From contig NZ_OBMT01000004.1 of NCBI RefSeq assembly GCF_900217815.1, forward strand, positions 1 through 64,000: a stretch of 64,000 nucleotides of DNA, given 5' to 3'. Positions within the stretch are counted from its first letter, which is position 1; each line of letters begins with the position of its first letter. This DNA comes from Rhodobacter maris. Lineage in GTDB: Bacteria; Pseudomonadota; Alphaproteobacteria; Rhodobacterales; Rhodobacteraceae. The notes under the pieces were generated by a model. It made no database searches and was not told where the DNA came from. It saw only the letters and a program-made list of their open reading frames with translations. This document shows positions 3,630 to 13,195 of the stretch, in pieces. Made by a program: the position numbers and the translations under genes.

Positions 3630-3643
3630 TGGCGGAAGCGGTG
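3630..3643. repeat. Left attachment-site repeat (copy of tRNA-Ser 3' end)
   Basis: TGGCGGAAGCGGTG matches positions 13182-13195 exactly and in the same orientation. Read on the minus strand it is the acceptor-stem 3' strand plus CCA of tRNA-Ser. Bases on either side of the 14-mer differ between the two copies. Confidence 0.75.
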
Positions 3644-3789: not shown

Positions 3790-5112
3790 ATGGCCAAGGA
3801 AGGAATTCGGAGACCGGAAAAGGCGCTGTCGCCCCGTTTTGTGGAGACCGTGACAGCACCCGGCAAGCACTTCGACGGGAACGGCTTGTTTCTTCGGGTG
3901 CAGGCGAACGGATCGAAGCAATGGGTGCAACGCATCGTCATTCGTGGCAAGCGTTGCGAGCTTGGCTTGGGAAGTCCCCCGGCGATCTCCCTTGCAACTG
4001 CCCGCAAGCTGGCCTTGGAAAACCGGGGCAAGGCGATGCTCGGGGGTGATCCGTTGCAGGATCGGCGCGAGGCTCGGGCCGGGCTGACCTTTGCCGAGGC
4101 GAAGGAAAAGTATCTGGCGGCGAAGCTGGATGAATTCCGCAACGACAAGCACCGCAAGCAATGGGAAGCCACGCTTGAAACCTACGCAATCCCGACGCTC
4201 GGGCCGAAGCGGGTTTCGGAAATTTCGGTGCAGGACGTGTTGAAGGTGCTGGAACCGATCTGGCAGGGCAAAACCGAAACCGCATCACGCCTGCGCGGGC
4301 GGATCGAAAGCGTGCTGTCGTGGGCGACGGTGGCCGGGCACCGCGTGGGCGACAACCCCGCCCGATGGAAGGGCAACCTTTCGGAGCTTCTGCCCAAGGT
4401 CGCCAAGGTTGCGAAGTCCGAAAATCAGCCTGCGCTTGCCTTGGCCGATGTGCCGCGCTGGTGGGCCGATCTGGCCCTGCGCGAGGGCATGGCGGCGCGG
4501 GCGCTCGAATTCCTGACCCTGACTGCCGCCAGATCGGGCGAAGTGCGCGGCATGACGTGGGATGAACTCGACTTCGGTGTATCGGACAAAACCGACGCAA
4601 CCGACGAAACCCCCGTTGCGACACTCGCGACTTCTGCGACATGGACCGTTCCCGCGTCTCGAATGAAGAACGGGCGGGAACATCGGGTGGCCCTGACCCC
4701 CGAGGCGGTGGCGATCTTGAAACGTCTGCCACGGCGATCTGACTCGCCTTTCGTGTTTCCCGCGCCGATGGGGGGTGCATTGTCCGACATGACGATTTCT
4801 GCCGTGATGCGGCGGATGCAGGAAACCGAAAGCAAGGCAGGCCGCCCCGGTTATCTAGACCCTCGCAACAAGCGCCCCGCCGTGCCGCACGGGCTGCGCT
4901 CGACCTTCCGGCAATGGGCCGCCGAACGGGGCTATCCGCGCGACATGGCCGAAATAGCCTTGGCGCACTTCATCGGCTCTGACGTGGAGCGGGCCTATCA
5001 GCGATCCGACATGCTCGAACGGCGGCGGGTGATGATGGCTGCTTGGGCGCGCTTCCTGAGCGGTGAGGCAGGTGTTGAAACGGTGCTGGCATTTGCAGGA
5101 TCGACGCGTTGA
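3790..5112 (+). CDS. int: P4-type tyrosine recombinase (island integrase)
   Basis: This 440-residue integrase has the P4/CP4-57 layout. An N-terminal DUF4102-like arm-binding domain spans about residues 5-95 (DGNGLFLRVQANGSKQWVQR), followed by a core-binding SAM-like domain (about 100-200) and the catalytic domain (about 220-420). The catalytic set is complete: Arg248 (AARSGE), Lys293 (MKNG), His367 and Arg370 (HGLR), His393 (ALAH) and Tyr403 (AYQRS). It should excise and integrate the element at tRNA-Ser. The catalytic domain contains a three-residue-periodic insert (TDATDE...ATLATSATW, about 265-284) encoded by 9-bp DNA repeats that recur inverted at 8312-8341. A second small repeat (KVAKVAK) lies at about 203-209. 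Confidence 0.95.
   Translation: MAKEGIRRPEKALSPRFVETVTAPGKHFDGNGLFLRVQANGSKQWVQRIVIRGKRCELGLGSPPAISLATARKLALENRGKAMLGGDPLQDRREARAGLTFAEAKEKYLAAKLDEFRNDKHRKQWEATLETYAIPTLGPKRVSEISVQDVLKVLEPIWQGKTETASRLRGRIESVLSWATVAGHRVGDNPARWKGNLSELLPKVAKVAKSENQPALALADVPRWWADLALREGMAARALEFLTLTAARSGEVRGMTWDELDFGVSDKTDATDETPVATLATSATWTVPASRMKNGREHRVALTPEAVAILKRLPRRSDSPFVFPAPMGGALSDMTISAVMRRMQETESKAGRPGYLDPRNKRPAVPHGLRSTFRQWAAERGYPRDMAEIALAHFIGSDVERAYQRSDMLERRRVMMAAWARFLSGEAGVETVLAFAGSTR
4396..4422 (+). repeat. 9-bp tandem repeat within integrase gene
   Basis: Three 9-mers in register: AAGGTCGCC, AAGGTTGCG, AAGTCCGAA. They encode the KVAKVAKSE stretch of the linker before the catalytic domain. They share a 9-bp period with the repeats at 4582 and 4619. 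Confidence 0.55.
4582..4611. repeat. 30-bp iteron-like repeat, copy A (inverted copy at 8312-8341)
   Basis: On the plus strand it reads as 9-mers GGACAAAAC, CGACGCAAC, CGACGAAAC with flanking bases. Its reverse complement matches 8312-8341 at 29 of 30 positions. Here it is in frame and encodes SDKTDATDET inside the integrase catalytic domain. Confidence 0.8.
4619..4640. repeat. Second cluster of CGAC repeats, 9-bp phase
   Basis: CGAC occurs at 4619, 4628 and 4637, exactly 9 bp apart, directly after copy A, where CGAC lies at 4593 and 4602. It encodes ATLATSAT. Confidence 0.55.
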
Positions 5113-5434
5113 TGGCGACTGATCGGCAATTGGCAGAAGCTATCGGCTTGCTCAAGCCCCTGCTGGAATCCTGAAGCCCTTGACGTGGCCAAATCGTGAA
5201 CGGACAATACGCCATGTTCCACCCGGACATGAGTGGAATGTCTACTAGCCTCGAACCGGATAGAAGAGACTAGCATCGAACAGGAGCAAGATCGGAGAGG
5301 CCCCAACGCACGATTGCAACGCGCGAAGGGGCCGGGTGTAAGGGTTGAACCGCCTCACACACCCTTTCTGGTCTGAGTCGCTACTTTTCGCAACTGCGAA
5401 GATTGCGGCAATTTTGACAATGAAAGGAACGACC
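5113..5434. other. Intergenic region between integrase and AlpA-like gene
   Basis: No gene is seen. The 3' part is AT-richer and holds two adjacent dyads (listed separately), as expected of the control region for the AlpA-to-restriction gene run. Confidence 0.5.
5387..5412. promoter_or_regulatory. Two adjacent dyad symmetries upstream of the AlpA-like gene
   Basis: TTCGCA-AC-TGCGAA (5387-5400) is a perfect 6-2-6 palindrome, and ATTGC-G-GCAAT (5402-5412) is a perfect 5-1-5 palindrome. They sit 23 to 48 bp before the proposed start. This is suitable spacing for an operator bound by AlpA or by the HTH protein of the island. Function is inferred. Confidence 0.45.
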
Positions 5435-5620
5435 TTGGCAGAAGCCATACTGAGACGAACCGCAGTTGAACATCGCACCGGGCTTGCCCGATCGACGATT
5501 TACGATTGGATGAAGCGGGGCCTGTTCCCGAAACCCGTTGCGCTTGGCGCGCGGCTGGTGGGGTGGCGCGAAAGCGACATTCAGGCATGGCTCGCCGCCC
5601 GCGAACCGAAAGCCCTCTGA
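5435..5620 (+). CDS. AlpA-family regulator / excisionase-like protein
   Basis: This is a 61-residue single-domain MerR-like winged helix: ILRRTAVEHRTGLARSTIYD then WMKRGLFPKPVALGARLVGW..SDIQAWL. These are the hallmarks of AlpA, which activates integrase expression or assists excision in P4-like elements. The TTG at 5435 was preferred because GAAAGGA lies six bases before it. An ATG at 5420 (66 residues) has no such site. It is the first gene after the dyad-rich control region and leads a run of tightly packed genes, so it may control island replication and excision together. Confidence 0.85.
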   Translation: MAEAILRRTAVEHRTGLARSTIYDWMKRGLFPKPVALGARLVGWRESDIQAWLAAREPKAL

Positions 5621-5624
5621 CAAC

Positions 5625-5885
5625 ATGGCAGGCGATCGAATTCCAAGCCCGGTGGACCTTTCCAACGGGGCAGGTGGGCTTTGCCATGCGTTAGCGGCGG
5701 GCTTCAACACCTTCGCGGCCAGCGCCTCGCGCGGCATATCGGGATTGCTGGCCCAGCGCCTCGCGATCCTCGCAGCGATTGATCCTCTGGCCCTTGCGGC
5801 TCTGGTGCCGATCGGCGGGCAACTGGTGGGGGCTGTCCTTTCCACTGTGCAAGGGGGGCGGCAATTATGGATGCGCAATCCTTGA
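5625..5885 (+). CDS. Small Ala/Leu-rich hypothetical protein
   Basis: This is an 86-residue frame starting four bases after the AlpA-like stop and overlapping the next gene by 19 bp. It is rich in Ala, Gly and Leu with a mildly hydrophobic centre (GLLAQRLAILAAIDPLALAA then LVPIGGQLVGAVL), which could be one or two weak membrane helices or an amphipathic bundle. I recognise no family. Tight packing in the operon supports it being translated, but composition alone cannot exclude a chance frame. Confidence 0.45.
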   Translation: MAGDRIPSPVDLSNGAGGLCHALAAGFNTFAASASRGISGLLAQRLAILAAIDPLALAALVPIGGQLVGAVLSTVQGGRQLWMRNP

Positions 5886-6745
5886 CCCGTTCCCTGGGTG
5901 GGAAGTGGCATGGCCGATATGGCACCTGTGCTTGCCCGGTTTGCCAGCCCGCACGCCGCAGGGGGCAGGACGCCCTGACCCTTGCCGATGGCACAAAGGG
6001 GCTTCTCGCCCATTGCAAACGCCTTAGTTGCGGCTTCGGTGACATTTTGGCGGCGGCTGGGGTTTCCGCTGGCAGCTACTCCCCCCCGGATGCCGAGACG
6101 CTGGCCCGATACGATGCCGAGCGGCGGGCCGAAGCCGAAAGGCGCGAACGCCAGGCAAGGGCGCTATGGGGCGAGGCAAAGCCGATCGCAGGAACGGTGG
6201 CCGAAACCTATCTGCGCAAGCGCCGCATCGGCTGCGATCTGCCCCCGGTGCTGCGCTTCCACCCCGAGGCGTGGCACGGGGCGACCGCCCGGCGATTGCC
6301 CGCACTGGTGGCGCTTGTTGAGGGCGGCGACGGCTTCGCGGTGCATCGCACCTATCTGCGCCCGGACGGTTTGGGCAAGGCCGAGGTGGACCCAGCCAAG
6401 GCGATGCTTGGGGCAGTCGCGGGCGGCGCTGTGCGGCTCGCCCAAGGGCCTGCGCGGCTGGTGCTGGCCGAGGGCATAGAAACTGCGCTGTCGCTTGCCT
6501 GCGGACTTCTGGATGGCCCGGCGACGATCTGGGCCGCGCTTTCGACATCGGGCCTGCGCGGGCTGCGGTTGCCCGCTCGACCAGGGCAGCTAACGATCGC
6601 CTGCGACGGCGACACCGCAGGCCGCGCGGCGGCGCTCGCACTTGCCGAGCGCGCGCACGAGCTGGGCTGGGACGTGGGCACCCTCGATCCCGGCGACGGG
6701 GCCGACTTCAACGACATTCTGACCGGAAAGGCGGTGCTGACATGA
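5867..6745 (+). CDS. Toprim-domain primase-like protein (P4 primase zinc-finger type)
   Basis: This 292-residue protein has an N-terminal zinc finger: C23-x2-C26 and Cys50/Cys55, in the CACPVC...HCKRLSC pattern of P4-type primases. A charged helical linker (about 75-110) and a C-terminal Toprim domain follow. The Toprim acidic residues are present: Glu202 in LAEGIETALSL, and Asp247-Gly-Asp249 in ACDGDTAGR. It lacks a helicase, which the overlapping downstream DUF3987 protein may supply. Together they resemble a split primase-helicase for replicating the excised island (inference). The stop overlaps the next start (ATGA). Confidence 0.85.
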   Translation: MDAQSLTRSLGGKWHGRYGTCACPVCQPARRRGQDALTLADGTKGLLAHCKRLSCGFGDILAAAGVSAGSYSPPDAETLARYDAERRAEAERRERQARALWGEAKPIAGTVAETYLRKRRIGCDLPPVLRFHPEAWHGATARRLPALVALVEGGDGFAVHRTYLRPDGLGKAEVDPAKAMLGAVAGGAVRLAQGPARLVLAEGIETALSLACGLLDGPATIWAALSTSGLRGLRLPARPGQLTIACDGDTAGRAAALALAERAHELGWDVGTLDPGDGADFNDILTGKAVLT

Positions 6746-8241
6746 ACGCGCGACCGCAAGAAATCCCGTTCAACCCGAGCTGGCCAGCACCCGACTTGCG
6801 TTTGCTTCGGTCCGATCTGCCGCCCGCCCCCGAATTGCCTGTTGCCGAAGTGCTCAAACCGCGCTTGGCCAGATGGGTGGCCAATGCCGCCCAGGCGAAA
6901 GGGGCGCCTGCCGATTATGTTTTCGCAGCGCTTCTGACCGTTGCCGCTTCGGTCATCGGCAATTCCCGATGGGTGACGATCTGGGAAGATTGGAGCGAAC
7001 CGCCGATGATCTGGGCAATGTGCATTGGTTTGCCCAGCGCGGGCAAAAGCCCTGCGATTGACGCCCTTTTGCAACCGCTTCGCAAAGTCGAACGCCCGAT
7101 GCGCGAAGCGGCAAAAGCCGAACGCAAGGCTTGGGAAGAACGGGCGGAAATCGCCAAACTTGCCGAACAGACATGGAAGGAAGCGGCAAAGTTGGCGATC
7201 AAAGCGGGCGAAACGCCCCCGGATCGACCGAAAAGCTGCGATGCGGGGCCGCCCCCGCATGTTCCCCGGCTGGTGGTCAATGATGGCACGATTGAAAAGC
7301 TGGGCGCGATCTTGGCGCAGCAACCGCGCGGCACTCTGCAAATGCGCGACGAACTGGCCGGATGGCTCGAAGGGATGCAACGCTATGCAGCCGGGGGCAC
7401 CGACCGCCCGTTTTGGCTCGAAGCCTTCGGGGGCCGCGACTTCACGGTGGAACGGATGGGGCGGGAACCGCTGACCATTTCCCGGCTTTCCATTTGTGTG
7501 CTGGGCGGAATTCAGCCTGACCGCCTGAAAAGCCTGCTTTTCAAAGCCGACGATGACGGGCTTTTGGCCCGCTTTCTGCCGATCTGGCCCGATCCCGCCC
7601 CCTTGTGCCGCCCATTGAACGGGGCGGGGGCGGCGGAAATGGAAGCGATATTGGCGCGGCTCTTGTCGCTTGAAATGGTGACCGACGAAACCGGCGAAAA
7701 GCGCCCGTGGTTTGTGCACTTTTCCGAATCCGCCCGTGACCTGATGCAGGAATTCCGAAAAACCGAACGCGTCTGGGAAGCTGATGTCGAGGGGCTTTTG
7801 CTGTCCTTCATCGGCAAGTTGCCGGGGCTTGCTGCGCGTTTGGCGCTGGTGCTGGCCTATCTCGACTGGGCGGCGGATGATTCCGGGGAACCGCGCGAAA
7901 TCACGGTAGAGCACTTTGGCCGGGCCGCGCATCTGGTGGAAGCCTATCTGTTGCCGATGGCACGGCGGGCCTATGCCGATGCCGCTACGCCGAAACCGCT
8001 TCGGGCTGCGCGACGGCTCTTGGCGATCTTGCGCAAAGAGAACTGGAATCGCTTCACGTCGCGCGATGTGCTGCGGCTTGACCGCGCGGGGCTTGCCACG
8101 GCGGCGGAACTCGACCCCGCATTGGTGATATTGACCGAGGGCGATTGCATCCGCGCCATCGAACAGCCCGCCAATCCGAAAGGTGGAAGGCCCCCCCGGC
8201 AATTCGCGGTGAACCCGGCTGTTTTCGGGGGGCCTCAATGA
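6742..8241 (+). CDS. DUF3987-domain ATPase (island replication protein)
   Basis: This 499-residue protein has DUF3987 features. There is a P-loop-like motif GLPSAGKSP at residues 96-104 and a conserved MRDELAGWLEGMQRY stretch at about 200. A TerL/RepA-like ATPase core and a helical C-terminus with a possible winged helix (LLAILRKENWNRFTSRDVLR) follow. DUF3987 proteins commonly lie next to Toprim proteins in satellites and integrative elements and are thought to act in replication. It overlaps the genes on both sides by four bases, so it is translated with them. Confidence 0.85.
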   Translation: MNARPQEIPFNPSWPAPDLRLLRSDLPPAPELPVAEVLKPRLARWVANAAQAKGAPADYVFAALLTVAASVIGNSRWVTIWEDWSEPPMIWAMCIGLPSAGKSPAIDALLQPLRKVERPMREAAKAERKAWEERAEIAKLAEQTWKEAAKLAIKAGETPPDRPKSCDAGPPPHVPRLVVNDGTIEKLGAILAQQPRGTLQMRDELAGWLEGMQRYAAGGTDRPFWLEAFGGRDFTVERMGREPLTISRLSICVLGGIQPDRLKSLLFKADDDGLLARFLPIWPDPAPLCRPLNGAGAAEMEAILARLLSLEMVTDETGEKRPWFVHFSESARDLMQEFRKTERVWEADVEGLLLSFIGKLPGLAARLALVLAYLDWAADDSGEPREITVEHFGRAAHLVEAYLLPMARRAYADAATPKPLRAARRLLAILRKENWNRFTSRDVLRLDRAGLATAAELDPALVILTEGDCIRAIEQPANPKGGRPPRQFAVNPAVFGGPQ

Positions 8242-8549
8242 CGCGATGGTTGCAAGCCGCAAAGCAAGCCGCACCTTCAAATTCCGAAGGCATCAATCCC
8301 GACCTGAAGCCGGTTTCGTCGGTTGTGTCGGTTTTGTCCGAAGGGCAGCCCCCTGTCGGACCGCCCCCCGAGACCTTCCCCTATGGCTCCGCCTGCGACC
8401 TTGGGCTTTCGCCGCGCACCTGGGCGGGCCGTGTCGTTTCCTTGGCCGATTGGCGCGGGCTGACAGATTGGGAGCGGCACGGGCCTCATGGGAAGCACTG
8501 GAACGGCAACACCCGCCAATGGGAACCGAGCGAAGGCGGCGCGGCGTGA
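8238..8549 (+). CDS. Hypothetical island protein containing the inverted 30-bp repeat
   Basis: This 103-residue protein overlaps the DUF3987 stop and the next start by four bases each, so it is almost certainly translated. The N-terminal third is low complexity (PVSSVVSVLSEGQPPVGPPP) and is encoded by the 30-bp repeat at 8312-8341. The C-terminal part (LSPRTWAGRVVSLADWRGLT then DWERHGPHGKHWNGNTRQW) is Trp/His-rich and looks folded. Similar small proteins with such a WERHGP...W ending occur after DUF3987 genes in Rhodobacterales islands (recollection). No function is known. Confidence 0.65.
   Translation: MTRWLQAAKQAAPSNSEGINPDLKPVSSVVSVLSEGQPPVGPPPETFPYGSACDLGLSPRTWAGRVVSLADWRGLTDWERHGPHGKHWNGNTRQWEPSEGGAA
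8312..8341. repeat. 30-bp iteron-like repeat, copy B (inverted copy of 4582-4611)
   Basis: It reads as 9-mers GTTTCGTCG, GTTGTGTCG, GTTTTGTCC on the plus strand. It matches the reverse complement of 4582-4611 at 29 of 30 positions. It encodes VSSVVSVLS here. Confidence 0.8.
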
Positions 8550-9064
8550 CCGGGGCAGAACTCGCGGCGATCCGAAAGGCGGCGGGGTTGTCTCAAACCG
8601 TGCTCGCCCGACGCGCGGGCATTGGGCGCCATGCGGTTTCATATTGGGAGAACAGGCCGCAGGTTGACCTTCGCGCGTGGGCAGTTGAGCGCATGGCCGA
8701 GGTGATCGACTTGCCGAAGAAACCCGCTCTGGGCTGGCGTTTGCGCGCGCCTTGGGAACGGGCTTTGGAAGCGCAAGCCGAGGCGGCTTTCATCGCATAC
8801 GCTTTGCGGCTCAAGGCCCGCTGCGATGCCGCCGCCGCAAGGCGCCGCGTGATCTGCGGCGCCATGACGCGCAAGGGAACAGCTTGCCGGTGCCTGAGCG
8901 AACCGGGAAAGCGGCGGTGCAAGTTTCACGGCGGCAAAAGCACTGGCGCACGAACCCCCGAGGGGCTGGACCGCATCCGCGAAGCGCAACGGCGGCGCTG
9001 GGCGAAGTGGCGGGCCGAGCAATTGAAAAACAATCAAGCCAAGCCTCGCGACATGGGCTGTTAG
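8546..9064 (+). CDS. XRE-type HTH protein with C-terminal Cys/His (HGGxSTG) module
   Basis: This is 172 residues from a GTG start that overlaps the previous stop (GTGA). Residues 1-55 form an XRE-like helix-turn-helix (AELAAIRKAAGLSQTVLARR then AGIGRHAVSYWEN). After a helical linker, residues 103-145 carry the C-x9-C-x-C..C-x2-HGGKSTGARTPEG motif, a small metal-finger module seen alone in many phage and island proteins. Fusion to an HTH suggests DNA binding by both ends. It directly precedes the restriction-modification gene, whose start is preceded by a palindrome, so it is a candidate regulator of that gene (inference). Confidence 0.7.
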   Translation: MTGAELAAIRKAAGLSQTVLARRAGIGRHAVSYWENRPQVDLRAWAVERMAEVIDLPKKPALGWRLRAPWERALEAQAEAAFIAYALRLKARCDAAAARRRVICGAMTRKGTACRCLSEPGKRRCKFHGGKSTGARTPEGLDRIREAQRRRWAKWRAEQLKNNQAKPRDMGC

Positions 9065-9253: not shown

Positions 9254-12200
9254 TTGCAGATCGAAGATTTTATTGAGCGTTGGAAACATTCGGGCGGCAG
9301 CGAACGCGCCAATTTCCAGACCTTCGCGAATGAATTGTGCGAGGTGCTGGGCCTGCCCCGGCCCGCCCCGGCAACCGAGGCCACGCAGGCCAATTCCTAT
9401 TGCTTCGAACATCCCGTGACCTTCATTCACACGGGCGCCCAATCGCGCGGCTTCATCGACCTTTACCGCGCGGGCCATTTCGTCATGGAAGCCAAACAGG
9501 GCACCGATGCCGCGCGCGAGGATGACGCCCAACCCGCCCTGATCCCCGATCTGCCCGGCCCGACCCGCAAGGGCCACGGCACCCGAGGCAGCAAACGCTG
9601 GGATGACACCATGTTGCGCGCCCGCGCCCAGGCCGATGGCTACGCCCGCGCGGTCTCGCGCAAGGATGGCTGGCCGCCGTTCTTGCTGGTGGTGGACGTG
9701 GGCCACGTCATCGAAGTCTATGCCGATTTCTCGGGGCAGGGGCAGGGCTACACCCAATTCCCCGATGGCAACCGCTATCGCATCCGCCTAGACGATCTGC
9801 GCGACGAAAAGACCCGCGAGAGACTGCGCGCGATCTGGACCGATCCCCACGCGCTCGACCCCGCCAAGATCGCCGCCAAGGTCACCCGCGAAGTGGCTGA
9901 TCGGCTGGCCGCGCTGGGCCGATCCTTCGACGGGCAGGGCCATGAACCCGATACCGTGGCCCGCTTCCTGATGCGCTGCCTGTTCACCATGTTTGCCGAA
10001 GATGTGGAATTGATCCCGCTGGGCAGCTTTTCCGAGCTTCTGCACCGCCTGCGCGGCCACCCCGAACATGCAGCCCCCACGCTCAAAGCCCTTTGGGCGA
10101 CGATGAACACGGGCGGCTTTTCCCCGGTCCTGACCGCCGATCTCAAACGCTTCAACGGTGGGCTTTTCAAGGATGCCGAGGCGCTGCCTCTGACCGAGGT
10201 GCAACTGTCGCTGTTGATCGACGCCGCAGGCCGCGATTGGCGCGAGGTTGAACCCGCGATCTTCGGCACCCTTCTTGAACGCGCCCTCGATAAGCGCCAG
10301 CGTCACAAGCTGGGCGCCCATTACACGCCGCGCGCCTATGTCGAACGGCTGGTGGTGCCCACGATCATCGACCCCCTGCGCGCCGATTGGCGCGATGTGC
10401 AGGCCGCCGCCATCACCCTTGCCGCCCAGGGCAAACAGGATGAAGCCCGCGAAGCCGTGCGCGCCTTCCACACCCGGCTTTGCGAAATCAAGGTGCTCGA
10501 TCCCGCCTGCGGCTCGGGCAACTTCCTTTACGTCGCCCTTGAGCTAATGAAGCGGCTTGAAGGCGAGGTGACCGACCTCTTGCACGATCTGGGCGAGGAA
10601 CAAACCGCCCTCGCGCTGGCCGGTCATACCGTGGACCCGCACCAATTCCTTGGCCTCGAAGTCAACCCCTGGGCGGCAGCGGTGGCCGAGCTGGTGCTGT
10701 GGATCGGCTATCTGCAATGGCACTTCCGCACCCACGGCAAGGCCAGCCCCGCCGAACCCGTGCTGCGCGATTTCCACAATATCGAGAACCGCGACGCGGT
10801 GCTGACATGGGACGGCACTCGCCCCCGGTGTGACACCTCGGGCGCCCCCGTCACCCGCTGGGATGGCACCACCACTACCCGCCACCCGGTGACCGGCGAC
10901 GAAGTGCCCGACCCGCAGGCCCGCATTGCCGTGCTCGACTATCTCAAACCCGCCCCCGCGAAATGGCCCGAGGCCGATTTCATCGTCGGCAACCCGCCCT
11001 TCATCGGCGACAAGCGGATGCGCGAGGCTTTGGGAGAAGGGTATTCCGAGGCTTTGCGAGAGGCTTACCCGACCATTCCGCAAAGCGCGGATTTCGTCAT
11101 GTTCTGGTGGCACAAGGCGGCGCTGGCCGCGCGCGCCTTCAAACCCGCGACCGAGAAAGCCCGCGCCAAGGGCACCCGCCGTTTTGGCTTCATCACCACC
11201 AATTCGCTGCGCCAGACCTTCAATCGTCGGGTGTTGGAACCGCATCTGAACGACCCGAAAACGCCGCTGTCCCTTGCCTTCGCGATCCCCGACCACCCCT
11301 GGGTGGATGCTGGCGACGGGGCGGCGGTGCGCATTGCCATGACGGTGGCCGAGGCGGGCAAGGCACCGGGGCGGTTGGGCACGGTGACCGAGGAAGCGAA
11401 AGGGCGATACGAGGCCGAAGGCCGCCCGGTGCGCTTCGAGGTGGAAAAGGGCAAGGTCTTTGCCGATCTGCGTATCGGCGCGGATGTGGCGGGCGCAGTG
11501 CCGCTTAAGGCGAATGATGCAATTTCCTCAAATGGCGTGATGTTGGCCGGGGAGGGATTTATTGTTTCGCCATCGGAGGCCCAATCGCTTGGGCTAGGTT
11601 CTGTCAAAGGGCTTGAGCAGCACATCAGACCATACAGAAATGGGCGAGACCTGACCGCAAGCCCCCGAGGTGTGATGGTTATCGACTTGCTGGGATTGGA
11701 ACAAACTGAGGTGAAAGACCGTTTCCCCCTCGTTTTTCAACACCTCTTGGATAAGGTGAAGCCCATTCGGGACGAGAACAAGCGGCCTTCATTCGTGAAA
11801 AGGTGGTGGATCTTCGGGGAACCCCGTAAAGGCATACGTCCTGCGCTGAACAGTCTCACGCGATACATCGCAACTGTTGAAACGACCAAGCACAGGCTGT
11901 TTCAGTTTTTGCCGGTAGCCACGCTGCCAGATCACATGCTGATTGCCATTGCCCTTGATGACGCCGCCGCGCTGGCCGTTCTGTCGTCGCGCTTTCACGT
12001 CATCTGGGCGTTGACCGCTGGCGGGCGTCTCGGGTTTGGCAACGATCCGCGTTACAACAAATCCAAATGCTTCAACCCCTTTCCTTTCCCCGATCCGACC
12101 GAGGCGCAGAATACCCGCCTGCGCGCTCTGGGCGAGCAACTGGACGCGCATAGGAAGGCGCAGCAAAAAGCCCACCCCAAGCTGACCCTGACCGGCATGT

Positions 12201-12721
12201 ATAACGTGCTCGAAAAGCTGCGCGCGGGCGAACGCATCGAAGGCAAGGACCGCGAAATTTACGACCAGGGCCTTGTGGGCATTTTGAAAGACCTGCACGA
12301 CCAGATCGACGCCGCCGTTGCCGAGGCTTACGGCTGGCCGCTGGACCTGTCCGAGGATGACATTCTGCACCGGCTGGTTGCGCTCAACCGCGAACGGGTG
12401 GCCGAGGAAGCGCGCGGGCATATCCGCTGGCTGCGCCCCGAGTATCAAAACCCCGCTGGCCGGGTAGCCGTGGCCAAGGGCGAACAAACCGCGCTCGACA
12501 TTGGCCCCGCCGACACCGCCGCCAAGGACGCATGGCCGAAAAACCTGCCCGAGCAGATTGCCGCCGTGCGCGCCGCGCTGACCGATCTGGGCACCGCGAC
12601 CCCCGAGCAAGTGGCCCGCCACTTCCACCGGGGCCGCGCCGCTTCGGTGCAACCGCTTCTCGAAAGCCTGACCGCGCTTGGCCAGGCCCGACTCGTGGAA
12701 GGCGGCCAATTCGCTGCCTGA
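9254..12721 (+). CDS. Single-chain type IIL/IIG restriction-modification enzyme (MmeI-like)
   Basis: This 1155-residue protein combines nuclease and adenine methyltransferase. The N-terminal PD-(D/E)xK site is Asp69 (GFIDLY) and Glu79-x-Lys81 (EAKQG); the D-x9-ExK spacing is the same as in MmeI. A helical linker follows (about 200-380). Methyltransferase motif I is DPACGSGNF (416-424) and motif IV is NPPF (580-583), which points to N6-adenine methylation. Residues about 760-1010 should be the target-recognition domain, with a helical C-terminus. It starts with TTG, preceded by a CAGGATGGG region. No separate methylase or specificity subunit is nearby, so it acts alone. It is the only cargo gene of the island and probably blocks incoming phage. 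Confidence 0.9.
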   Translation: MQIEDFIERWKHSGGSERANFQTFANELCEVLGLPRPAPATEATQANSYCFEHPVTFIHTGAQSRGFIDLYRAGHFVMEAKQGTDAAREDDAQPALIPDLPGPTRKGHGTRGSKRWDDTMLRARAQADGYARAVSRKDGWPPFLLVVDVGHVIEVYADFSGQGQGYTQFPDGNRYRIRLDDLRDEKTRERLRAIWTDPHALDPAKIAAKVTREVADRLAALGRSFDGQGHEPDTVARFLMRCLFTMFAEDVELIPLGSFSELLHRLRGHPEHAAPTLKALWATMNTGGFSPVLTADLKRFNGGLFKDAEALPLTEVQLSLLIDAAGRDWREVEPAIFGTLLERALDKRQRHKLGAHYTPRAYVERLVVPTIIDPLRADWRDVQAAAITLAAQGKQDEAREAVRAFHTRLCEIKVLDPACGSGNFLYVALELMKRLEGEVTDLLHDLGEEQTALALAGHTVDPHQFLGLEVNPWAAAVAELVLWIGYLQWHFRTHGKASPAEPVLRDFHNIENRDAVLTWDGTRPRCDTSGAPVTRWDGTTTTRHPVTGDEVPDPQARIAVLDYLKPAPAKWPEADFIVGNPPFIGDKRMREALGEGYSEALREAYPTIPQSADFVMFWWHKAALAARAFKPATEKARAKGTRRFGFITTNSLRQTFNRRVLEPHLNDPKTPLSLAFAIPDHPWVDAGDGAAVRIAMTVAEAGKAPGRLGTVTEEAKGRYEAEGRPVRFEVEKGKVFADLRIGADVAGAVPLKANDAISSNGVMLAGEGFIVSPSEAQSLGLGSVKGLEQHIRPYRNGRDLTASPRGVMVIDLLGLEQTEVKDRFPLVFQHLLDKVKPIRDENKRPSFVKRWWIFGEPRKGIRPALNSLTRYIATVETTKHRLFQFLPVATLPDHMLIAIALDDAAALAVLSSRFHVIWALTAGGRLGFGNDPRYNKSKCFNPFPFPDPTEAQNTRLRALGEQLDAHRKAQQKAHPKLTLTGMYNVLEKLRAGERIEGKDREIYDQGLVGILKDLHDQIDAAVAEAYGWPLDLSEDDILHRLVALNRERVAEEARGHIRWLRPEYQNPAGRVAVAKGEQTALDIGPADTAAKDAWPKNLPEQIAAVRAALTDLGTATPEQVARHFHRGRAASVQPLLESLTALGQARLVEGGQFAA

Positions 12722-13181: not shown

Positions 13182-13195
13182 TGGCGGAAGCGGTG
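13182..13195. repeat. Right attachment-site repeat within tRNA-Ser 3' end
   Basis: TGGCGGAAGCGGTG is identical to 3630-3643. It covers CCA, the discriminator base and the 3' acceptor strand of the tRNA. Confidence 0.75.

What the first reader, a model, noticed from the sequence alone, without database searches (positions are those of the whole stretch)
4582..8341. 30-bp iteron-like sequence embedded twice, inverted, in two coding genes of the island
Positions 4582-4611 (in the integrase gene) and 8312-8341 (in a small gene) are reverse complements at 29 of 30 bases. Each is three 9-bp units with a GTCG core, and more 9-bp-phased units lie at 4396-4422 and 4619-4640. Because 9 bp is three codons, the repeats stay in frame in either orientation (TDATDE in one, SSVVSV in the other). 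Unrelated proteins sharing inverted DNA suggests selection on the DNA, not the protein. It could be iterons for the Toprim/DUF3987 replication module, a recombination or regulator site, or a short mobile palindromic unit that inserts in frame.
Basis: partly seen in the sequence, partly recalled or inferred. Interest (0 to 1): 0.72.

Follow-up and report, generated by a model that had tools for sequence, protein, structure and literature searches.

The report
Origin-like repeats hidden in integrase gene
A small mobile island carries two matching sets of short DNA repeats, one written into its integrase gene and one just after its replication-helicase gene; related islands show that the two sets change together, so they look like the two halves of a replication-start site rather than chance or protein repeats.

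Summary
4582-4611 and 8312-8341 are reverse complements at 29 of 30 bases. They are two arms of three 9-bp iterons; a second iteron type lies at 4618-4641. The 4396-4422 units are not supported.

In a sample of DUF3987 helicase genes not chosen for the motif, 38 of 55 have 9-bp arrays near or after the stop codon: 28 as inverted pairs, 10 as single arms. Upstream, in-gene and shuffled controls give 0 or 1. Cores differ between islands, both arms change together, and arm spacing follows a ~10.8-bp helical period. The arrays track DUF3987 better than AlpA, primase or integrase.

When the local partner arm is missing, it lies inside the integrase gene with the same core in 8 of 9 islands, the window included.

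Best explanation: iterons of an origin recognised by the DUF3987 helicase, as in SaPI/PICI/Cch2 origins, here split so that half the site sits in the integrase coding sequence. Binding and origin function are inferred, not shown. A genome-wide mobile palindrome is unlikely: the arms are all but unique to this island in its genome.

The parts
3630..3643 (.). left copy of a 14-bp direct repeat (probable attL)
   Evidence: identical to 13182-13195, the 3' end of tRNA-Ser
3790..5112 (+). tyrosine integrase (Arm-DNA-bind_3, Phage_int_M, Phage_integrase)
   Evidence: Pfam
4582..4611 (-). distal arm: three 9-bp iterons of GTCGG type (4585-4611 reads GGTTTCGTCGGTTGCGTCGGTTTTGTC on the minus strand), inside an insert of the integrase
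   Evidence: same place in L125
4618..4641 (-). second distal arm: three 9-bp iterons of TGTCGC type (GCGACA, GCGACT, GCGACA on the plus strand)
   Evidence: only 3-unit array of 8 cores in 64 kb at that criterion; same place in L269, whose own post-DUF3987 arrays are of this type
5345..5620 (+). AlpA-family regulator/excisionase
   Evidence: Phage_AlpA 5e-20
5867..6745 (+). primase-like protein (DUF7146, Toprim_3)
6742..8241 (+). DUF3987 AAA+ helicase; predicted C-terminal winged helix about 7993-8238
   Evidence: Pfam 3.6e-69, PHROG helicase, model pLDDT 81, MCM/ORC/Cch-like fold matches
8238..8549 (+). small gene (MTRWLQAA...), start overlaps the DUF3987 stop (ATGA)
   Evidence: no family
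8312..8341 (+). proximal arm: three 9-bp iterons of GTCGG type, about 70 bp after the DUF3987 stop
8546..9064 (+). HTH_31 regulator
9254..12721 (+). MmeI-like restriction-modification cargo
13182..13195 (.). right copy of the 14-bp direct repeat, at the 3' end of tRNA-Ser(TGA) (probable attR)

Best explanation
The two arms are iterons, that is recognition sites, for the island's DUF3987 replicative helicase, and together form a split origin of replication. In most relatives that have arrays, two inverted arrays of 9-bp units stand side by side just after the DUF3987 gene, on the same face of the DNA helix. I infer that two DUF3987 oligomers bind them through the C-terminal winged helix, face each other and open the DNA, and that the Toprim primase starts synthesis on the excised circle. 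In this island and some kin one array lies instead in a permissive loop of the integrase gene. The initiator would then either bridge the two arms by looping 3.7 kb of DNA or use two sites, which could also tie integrase transcription to replication. Shown: the arrays, their place, pairing, helical phasing, joint change of core, and link to DUF3987. Inferred: binding, origin activity, looping and any effect on the integrase.
For: Place: 28 of 55 DUF3987 loci have an inverted pair of 9-bp arrays between 60 bp before and 440 bp after the stop, against 0 of 51 upstream, 0 of 55 inside and 0 of 165 shuffles; periods 7, 10 and 11 give 0 and period 8 gives 1. With single arms the count is 38 of 55; single-array test 36 of 55 downstream against 1 of 49 upstream, 0 of 55 inside, 0 of 55 shuffles. 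Phasing: 56 arm gaps lie at 11-13, 21-24, 30 (one), 33-34 and 54-55; R=0.91 at period 10.8, jitter null at most 0.49 and 0.51; with ten more hairpins read from viral contigs n=66, R=0.89, null at most 0.46. Diversity: cores TGTCGC, TGTAGC, AATAGC, ATTAGC, AATCGG, GGCTAA, TGCGAA, GTCRGTT, each shared by both arms. Split: 8 of 9 islands without a local partner have one of the same unit in the integrase (20-25 of 27 positions; control windows at most 19), 413-525 nt before the integrase ORF end (five of them first seen); 7 of the 8 were aligned and have it in one loop. Prediction: G060, with only a proximal arm, has the partner between int and alpA on another contig. Cognate protein: Mantel rho 0.46 and 0.42 for the DUF3987 core and C-terminal 95 residues, 0.25 int, 0.15 AlpA, -0.05 Toprim, n=26. 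Fold: MCM/ORC and SCCmec Cch helicase, C-terminal winged-helix order. Precedent read in passages: SaPI Rep and Cch2 recognise iterons just downstream of their own gene by the C-terminal domain (PMC7581432); PICI origins have two iteron sets 3' of the initiator gene (PMC6092414).
Against: No binding or replication data. 17 of 55 DUF3987 loci show no array, nor does E. coli K-12 yfjI. By the strict pair test only 6 of 27 loci picked by homology to the window protein and 16 of 31 of the remaining set pass, and in that last set 1 of 29 in-gene controls passes too. L308 has a single arm and no integrase partner. The same prediction made for G325 (70% complete genome) was not borne out: no clear partner arm was found. 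L273's integrase score (20) is only just above its controls (19). No clear AT-rich melting region: site AT 0.416 against island 0.395, higher in 30 of 46, unlike PICI origins. The Mantel test does not single out the winged helix (partial 0.07 against 0.22 for the rest of DUF3987). Three gaps fall off the helical grid or near its edge (L172 and L194 at 30, L179 at 67). The bare 22-mer also occurs away from DUF3987: 64 of the 80 listed genome loci have no DUF3987 ORF. A related satellite type was reported to replicate by rolling circle (PMC10803314 passages). Islands are related (L266 and L267 nearly so), so counts are not all independent.
Confidence: 0.68

Rival explanations
1. Operator/regulator sites: AlpA, the HTH_31 protein or the small-gene product binds the arrays to control int and the replication operon (9-bp boxes like those of P2 Cox, recalled).
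For: AlpA-type factors bind direct repeats (recalled); distal arms lie in int or between int and alpA.
Against: Core type follows DUF3987, hardly AlpA (rho 0.15, p 0.06). Arrays persist where no small gene of the M-RWL kind is seen after DUF3987 (L005, L009, L035, L037, L130). Arrays also follow DUF3987 on plasmids (Bartonella L204, Acinetobacter L207) with no AlpA-named gene annotated in the stretch fetched. The proximal arrays lie after the DUF3987 gene.
Confidence: 0.14
2. Arm-type sites of the tyrosine integrase (its Arm-DNA-bind_3 domain), used in excision and integration.
For: Integrase has an arm-binding domain; one arm lies in its gene; rho 0.25, p 0.004 for int.
Against: The arms are about 0.95 kb and 4.7-4.9 kb from the att repeats. 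Weaker link than DUF3987; the window integrase is 78% identical to that of L269 although their post-DUF3987 cores differ. Arrays also follow DUF3987 on plasmids with no integrase annotated in the stretch fetched.
Confidence: 0.06
3. RNA element: the inverted arms form an RNA hairpin (attenuator, terminator) or pair two mRNAs.
For: In most relatives that have arrays the arms could form a hairpin with a short loop.
Against: Gap lengths follow the DNA helical period. In split islands the arms are 3.7-11 kb apart. No run of T follows the window's proximal arm.
Confidence: 0.05
4. Mobile palindromic unit that inserts in frame, like Rickettsia palindromic elements (recalled).
For: In-frame insert in one integrase loop; a further arm in the DUF3987 gene of L008.
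Against: All but confined to the island in its genome; other cores occupy the same places in kin, matched between int and DUF3987.
Confidence: 0.03
5. Chance or protein-level repeats.
For: 9-bp repeats give 3-residue repeats; 64 of 80 motif loci are not beside a DUF3987 ORF, several of those inspected being simple coding repeats.
Against: Controls near zero; opposite strands and unrelated proteins change together; the frame of the left arm in the small gene differs between homologs (TKPTKP or DKTDTTDE).
Confidence: 0.02

Closest known systems
SaPI / PICI replication origins (Rep or Pri-Rep with iterons 3' of the gene)
   Same: helicase-initiator of a mobile island, primase beside it, iteron sets immediately 3' of the helicase gene (PMC7581432 and PMC6092414, passages read)
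   Different: helicase is DUF3987, not DUF927 or D5-type; 9-bp units in helically phased inverted sets; no clear AT-rich centre; one set may lie in the integrase gene
SCCmec Cch2 and its putative origin (three AAGTG iterons)
   Same: three iterons just downstream of the helicase gene, bound by its C-terminal domain (PMC7581432, passages)
   Different: 5-nt iterons in one direct-repeat set; other helicase family; nothing in a recombinase gene was described in the passages read
PICMI satellites of Vibrio (int-alpA-primase with DUF3987)
   Same: int, AlpA and a DUF3987 protein in a small island; deletion of prim lowers circular copies (PMC10803314, passages)
   Different: the words iteron, palindrom and inverted do not occur in the main text held; integrates at fis, this island at tRNA-Ser
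P4 satellite ori and crr
   Same: two separated sites kilobases apart for one primase-helicase (recalled)
   Different: neither site lies in the integrase gene, and the protein is the fused alpha protein (recalled)

Membership tests
SaPI/PICI-type iteron origin | iterons immediately 3' of the replicative helicase/initiator gene | tested here: met
   proximal arm about 70 bp after the DUF3987 stop; 38 of 55 DUF3987 loci
SaPI/PICI-type iteron origin | two iteron sets | tested here: met
   pairs in 28 of 55; in the window the second set lies in int
SaPI/PICI-type iteron origin | AT-rich region between the sets | tested here: not met
   site AT 0.416 against island 0.395, 30 of 46 higher; gaps are often only 11-24 bp
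SaPI/PICI-type iteron origin | AAA+ helicase with C-terminal DNA-binding domain | tested here: met
   prediction only: model pLDDT 81 with winged-helix order at 418-490; Foldseek to MCM, ORC, Cch 5dgk, E 5e-4 to 8e-3 and low TM-scores
SaPI/PICI-type iteron origin | initiator binds the iterons and drives replication | not testable with these tools
   needs EMSA and replicon assay
PICI | phage-induced excision and packaging | not testable with these tools
   no induction data; no terS sought
PICMI | int, AlpA and DUF3987 genes with insertion next to fis | tested here: not met
   gene set present, but the att repeat lies at tRNA-Ser
Dispersed palindromic element (RPE-like) | many copies at unrelated genomic places | tested here: not met
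   4 of 5 near matches in 3.83 Mb are the two window sites

The most novel reading that the evidence does not exclude
A family of satellite-like islands writes half of its replication origin into the coding sequence of its own integrase. The integrase loop is re-coded when the island changes helicase type, so the two half-sites stay matched and the integrase gene acts as a sensor or brake: when the initiator bridges the arms, replication starts and integrase transcription is blocked. The window integrase, which holds an inherited TGTCGC array beside a newly acquired GTCGG array matching its present helicase, would be a snapshot of such a swap.
Probability: 0.33. Interest if true: 0.88.

Novelty: new variant of a known kind. 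Interest (0 to 1): 0.8.

Why it matters
DUF3987 genes were found in 59 of 398 genomes of the phylum sample and 101 of 390 of the order sample, but no recognition site for them was found in the library searched: DUF3987 with iteron gave 0 papers, and 10 papers hold DUF3987 at all. This survey gives a predictable, sequence-diverse, helically phased site for many of them, hence a candidate origin map of many islands and a ready set of initiator-site pairs for specificity studies. The integrase-embedded arm is an unusual case of one gene carrying what looks like the DNA site of another gene's product, with the protein loop tracking a DNA code.

Tried and rejected
Mobile palindrome: disfavoured by the genome search. 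RNA hairpin: disfavoured by helical phasing and the split sites. 4396-4422 units: not supported. A motif-independent inverted-repeat score was less sensitive than the 9-bp array test: 9 of 56 downstream at or above 14, against 3 of 55 upstream, 1 of 56 inside and 0 of 336 shuffles. In some searches the DUF3987 frame was picked crudely; one search replaced them with an HMM-based frame and 55 usable loci. A class-wide scan of 385 genomes with the strict arm pattern hit only the window's genome and one other, not examined further. Viral scans: of 34 loci, 11 have a DUF3987 ORF; the others looked by eye like chance matches or hairpins beside other genes. E. coli K-12 CP4-57 yfjI: no array. In one search, 9 of 55 islands had no strong array and were set aside. 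The cut between 18 and 19 for a local mate is mine; of 13 islands at or below 18 I set aside L279, L289 and L293 (local pairs seen as L212, L225, L231) and L136 (doubtful array), leaving 9; L314 at 19 is borderline. In one search, of 11 fetched loci five had an integrase and arrays; L274 had a weak integrase hit but no array at the criterion, L270's integrase is cut off, and L271, L272, L275 and L276 gave no integrase hit.
Full report
Observation. The inverted repeat is at the stated places with 29 of 30 bases complementary. It is the strongest inverted repeat of the window (score 27; 10 shuffles of 64 kb reach at most 21; one of 60 shuffles of the 7-kb region reached 24, the next 20). In the host genome it is confined to the two sites, apart from one place with two mismatches. 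The units at 4396-4422 are not supported; those at 4618-4641 are real but of a different core.

Setting. The island runs from a 14-bp direct repeat at 3630-3643 to its copy at 13182-13195, the 3' end of tRNA-Ser. It holds an integrase, AlpA, a Toprim primase, a DUF3987 helicase, a small gene overlapping the DUF3987 stop, an HTH regulator and an MmeI-like restriction-modification gene. This is the gene set of PICMI satellites (int, alpA, DUF3987; PMC10803314, passages read), but at another site.

What relatives show. A scan of the species-genome collection for a 22-base core gave 87 stretches, 80 listed. I inspected 25 loci; 16 of the 80 carry a DUF3987 ORF, and 64 do not. In 14 of these 16 (not L008 and L015) the core is half of a pair: an arm GACNNAACY x2-5, a short gap, then an arm RGTTNNGTC x2-3. 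The pair usually lies right after DUF3987 (in L027 about 1.1 kb further), in the small gene or, where no such gene is seen (L005, L009, L035, L037, L130), outside it. In 394 genomes of the family the exact core occurs in 2, both on a contig with a DUF3987 gene, about 0.14 and 2.2 kb away. In the second, G174, the DUF3987 gene appears to have an internal deletion.

Sample not chosen by motif. The best Pfam DUF3987 matches from 390 order genomes and 398 phylum genomes gave 56 loci, 55 usable. 28 have an inverted pair of 9-bp arrays between 60 bp before and 440 bp after the stop. Controls: 0 of 51 upstream, 0 of 55 inside, 0 of 165 shuffles; periods 7, 10 and 11 give 0 and period 8 gives 1. By the same strict test 6 of 27 loci chosen by homology to the window protein and 16 of 31 of the remaining set pass; there, controls are 0 of 22 and 0 of 23 upstream, 0 of 25 and 1 of 29 inside. 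Ten more of the 55 have a single array; 17 have none. The cores differ widely (TGTCGC, TGTAGC, AATAGC, ATTAGC, AATCGG, GGCTAA, TGCGAA, GTCRGTT), yet the arms of one locus share the core. E. coli K-12 yfjI shows none. In viral contigs, 7 of 10 long ORFs chosen next to such a match are DUF3987.

Phasing. In one register the 56 gaps fall at 11-13, 21-24, 30 (one), 33-34 and 54-55. The resultant length is 0.91 at 10.8 bp, and the largest value in 5000 jittered sets is 0.49 (0.51 in the repeat). Adding ten viral hairpins first left out (10, 10, 12, 12, 22, 22, 30, 32, 44, 67) gives 0.89 with n=66, null at most 0.46. Same-face placement of two inverted arrays points to two protein assemblies meeting on duplex DNA, and away from an RNA hairpin.

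Split islands. Some loci have only the right arm after DUF3987. Of 11 such regions fetched, five had an integrase and arrays, and in all five the left arm, with the same core, lies inside the integrase gene; in L274 (weak integrase hit) no array passed, and in the other five the integrase was cut off or not found. A systematic pass over 55 islands found 46 with a strong array. Thirty-six of these have a local partner, nine lack it by my reading and one is doubtful. Eight of the nine have it in the integrase with 20-25 of 27 positions matching (controls at most 19), 413-525 nt before the integrase ORF end; L308 does not. Seven of the eight were aligned, and the insert is in the same loop in all seven; L008 has an insert there too, L053 a short one, and the nine other aligned integrases none. 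Three further islands with a local pair have an additional arm in or just after int (L134, L279, L288). Of two genomes for which I predicted a distal partner, G060 has it between int and alpA on another contig, while G325 (70% complete) shows no clear one.

The window as a snapshot. Its integrase is 78% identical to that of L269, whose integrase arm and post-DUF3987 arms are TGTCGC type. The window integrase has a TGTCGC array at that place and, directly before it, a GTCGG array that matches its own post-DUF3987 arm. L134 likewise has a GTCGG arm followed by a TGTAGC arm after int, and the L008 integrase holds GAATTAACC x3, a unit like that of L129. This looks like helicase-module exchange followed by acquisition of the matching arm; the order of events is inferred.

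Which protein reads it. Over 26 islands with all proteins in hand, distance between units correlates with DUF3987 distance (0.46 core, 0.42 C-terminal 95 residues; none of 500 permutations reached either), less with the integrase (0.25, p 0.004), barely with AlpA (0.15, p 0.06), and not with the primase (-0.05). The partial test does not separate the winged helix from the rest of DUF3987. The structure model (mean pLDDT 81, 14 sequences) has a C-terminal helix-strand-helix-helix-strand-strand order typical of a winged helix. Fold matches are MCM, ORC and the SCCmec helicase Cch, with modest E-values and low TM-scores. No solved relative was found by sequence.

Comparison with the known. Passages read in PMC7581432 state that SaPI Rep helicases recognise, by their C-terminal domain, an origin of short iterons directly downstream of their gene, and that Cch2 binds such repeats after its own gene. 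PMC6092414 states that PICI origins lie 3' of the initiator gene with two iteron sets flanking an AT-rich region. The arrays here fit that kind of site for a different helicase family, without a clear AT-rich centre. PMC5862659 (passages) predicts DUF3987 to be a helicase of mobile elements. Searches for DUF3987 with iteron, DUF3987 alone, YfjI with CP4-57 and iterons with integrase gene and related words listed no paper that, by its listing, describes such a site for DUF3987.

Verdict. A real DNA-level feature, most likely a split iteron origin of the DUF3987 replication module, one half of which is written into the integrase gene. New variant of a known kind; binding and replication remain to be shown.

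Noticed in passing
window 9254-12721: MmeI-like restriction-modification gene as island cargo (MmeI N, helicase spacer, methylase and TRD domains).
   Followed up: no
L205 (Sulfitobacter plasmid), about 90-140 bp after the DUF3987 stop: Perfect 17-bp inverted repeat CCTTGCCTTCCTCCGCC with a 19-bp loop after DUF3987, not clearly 9-bp periodic.
   Followed up: no
L206 (Rhodovastum phage-plasmid) and L143: Two distant DUF3987 loci share a long inverted repeat like TGTCGACAATGTCGCTTGCGCG with a 30-50 bp loop after the gene.
   Followed up: partly
L141, after DUF3987: Arms in everted order (TTTTGTCAGT... then ...ACTGACAAAA), opposite to the usual order.
   Followed up: no
L178 around 2554-2660: A GTCGG-type inverted array follows a Prim-Pol protein without a DUF3987 hit, so other primase-helicases may use the same kind of site.
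   Followed up: no
L185 293-4525: 1411-residue ORF without a Pfam hit directly beside a GTCAG-type hairpin in a viral contig.
   Followed up: no
L142 / L015 (Sulfitobacter G174), L142 10611-11000: DUF3987 gene apparently with an internal deletion, its N-terminus running into the end of the small gene; the arms on both sides are kept.
   Followed up: no
L269, L273, L302, L284, L288 after DUF3987: Several islands have two same-direction right arms 56-76 bp apart after DUF3987.
   Followed up: no
G000:C19:149221-150381: A second integrase, 54% identical to the window one, elsewhere in the host genome.
   Followed up: no
L207 (Acinetobacter plasmid) 4590-4660: ACTGACAAA hairpin directly after a YfjI-family gene on a plasmid.
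   Followed up: partly
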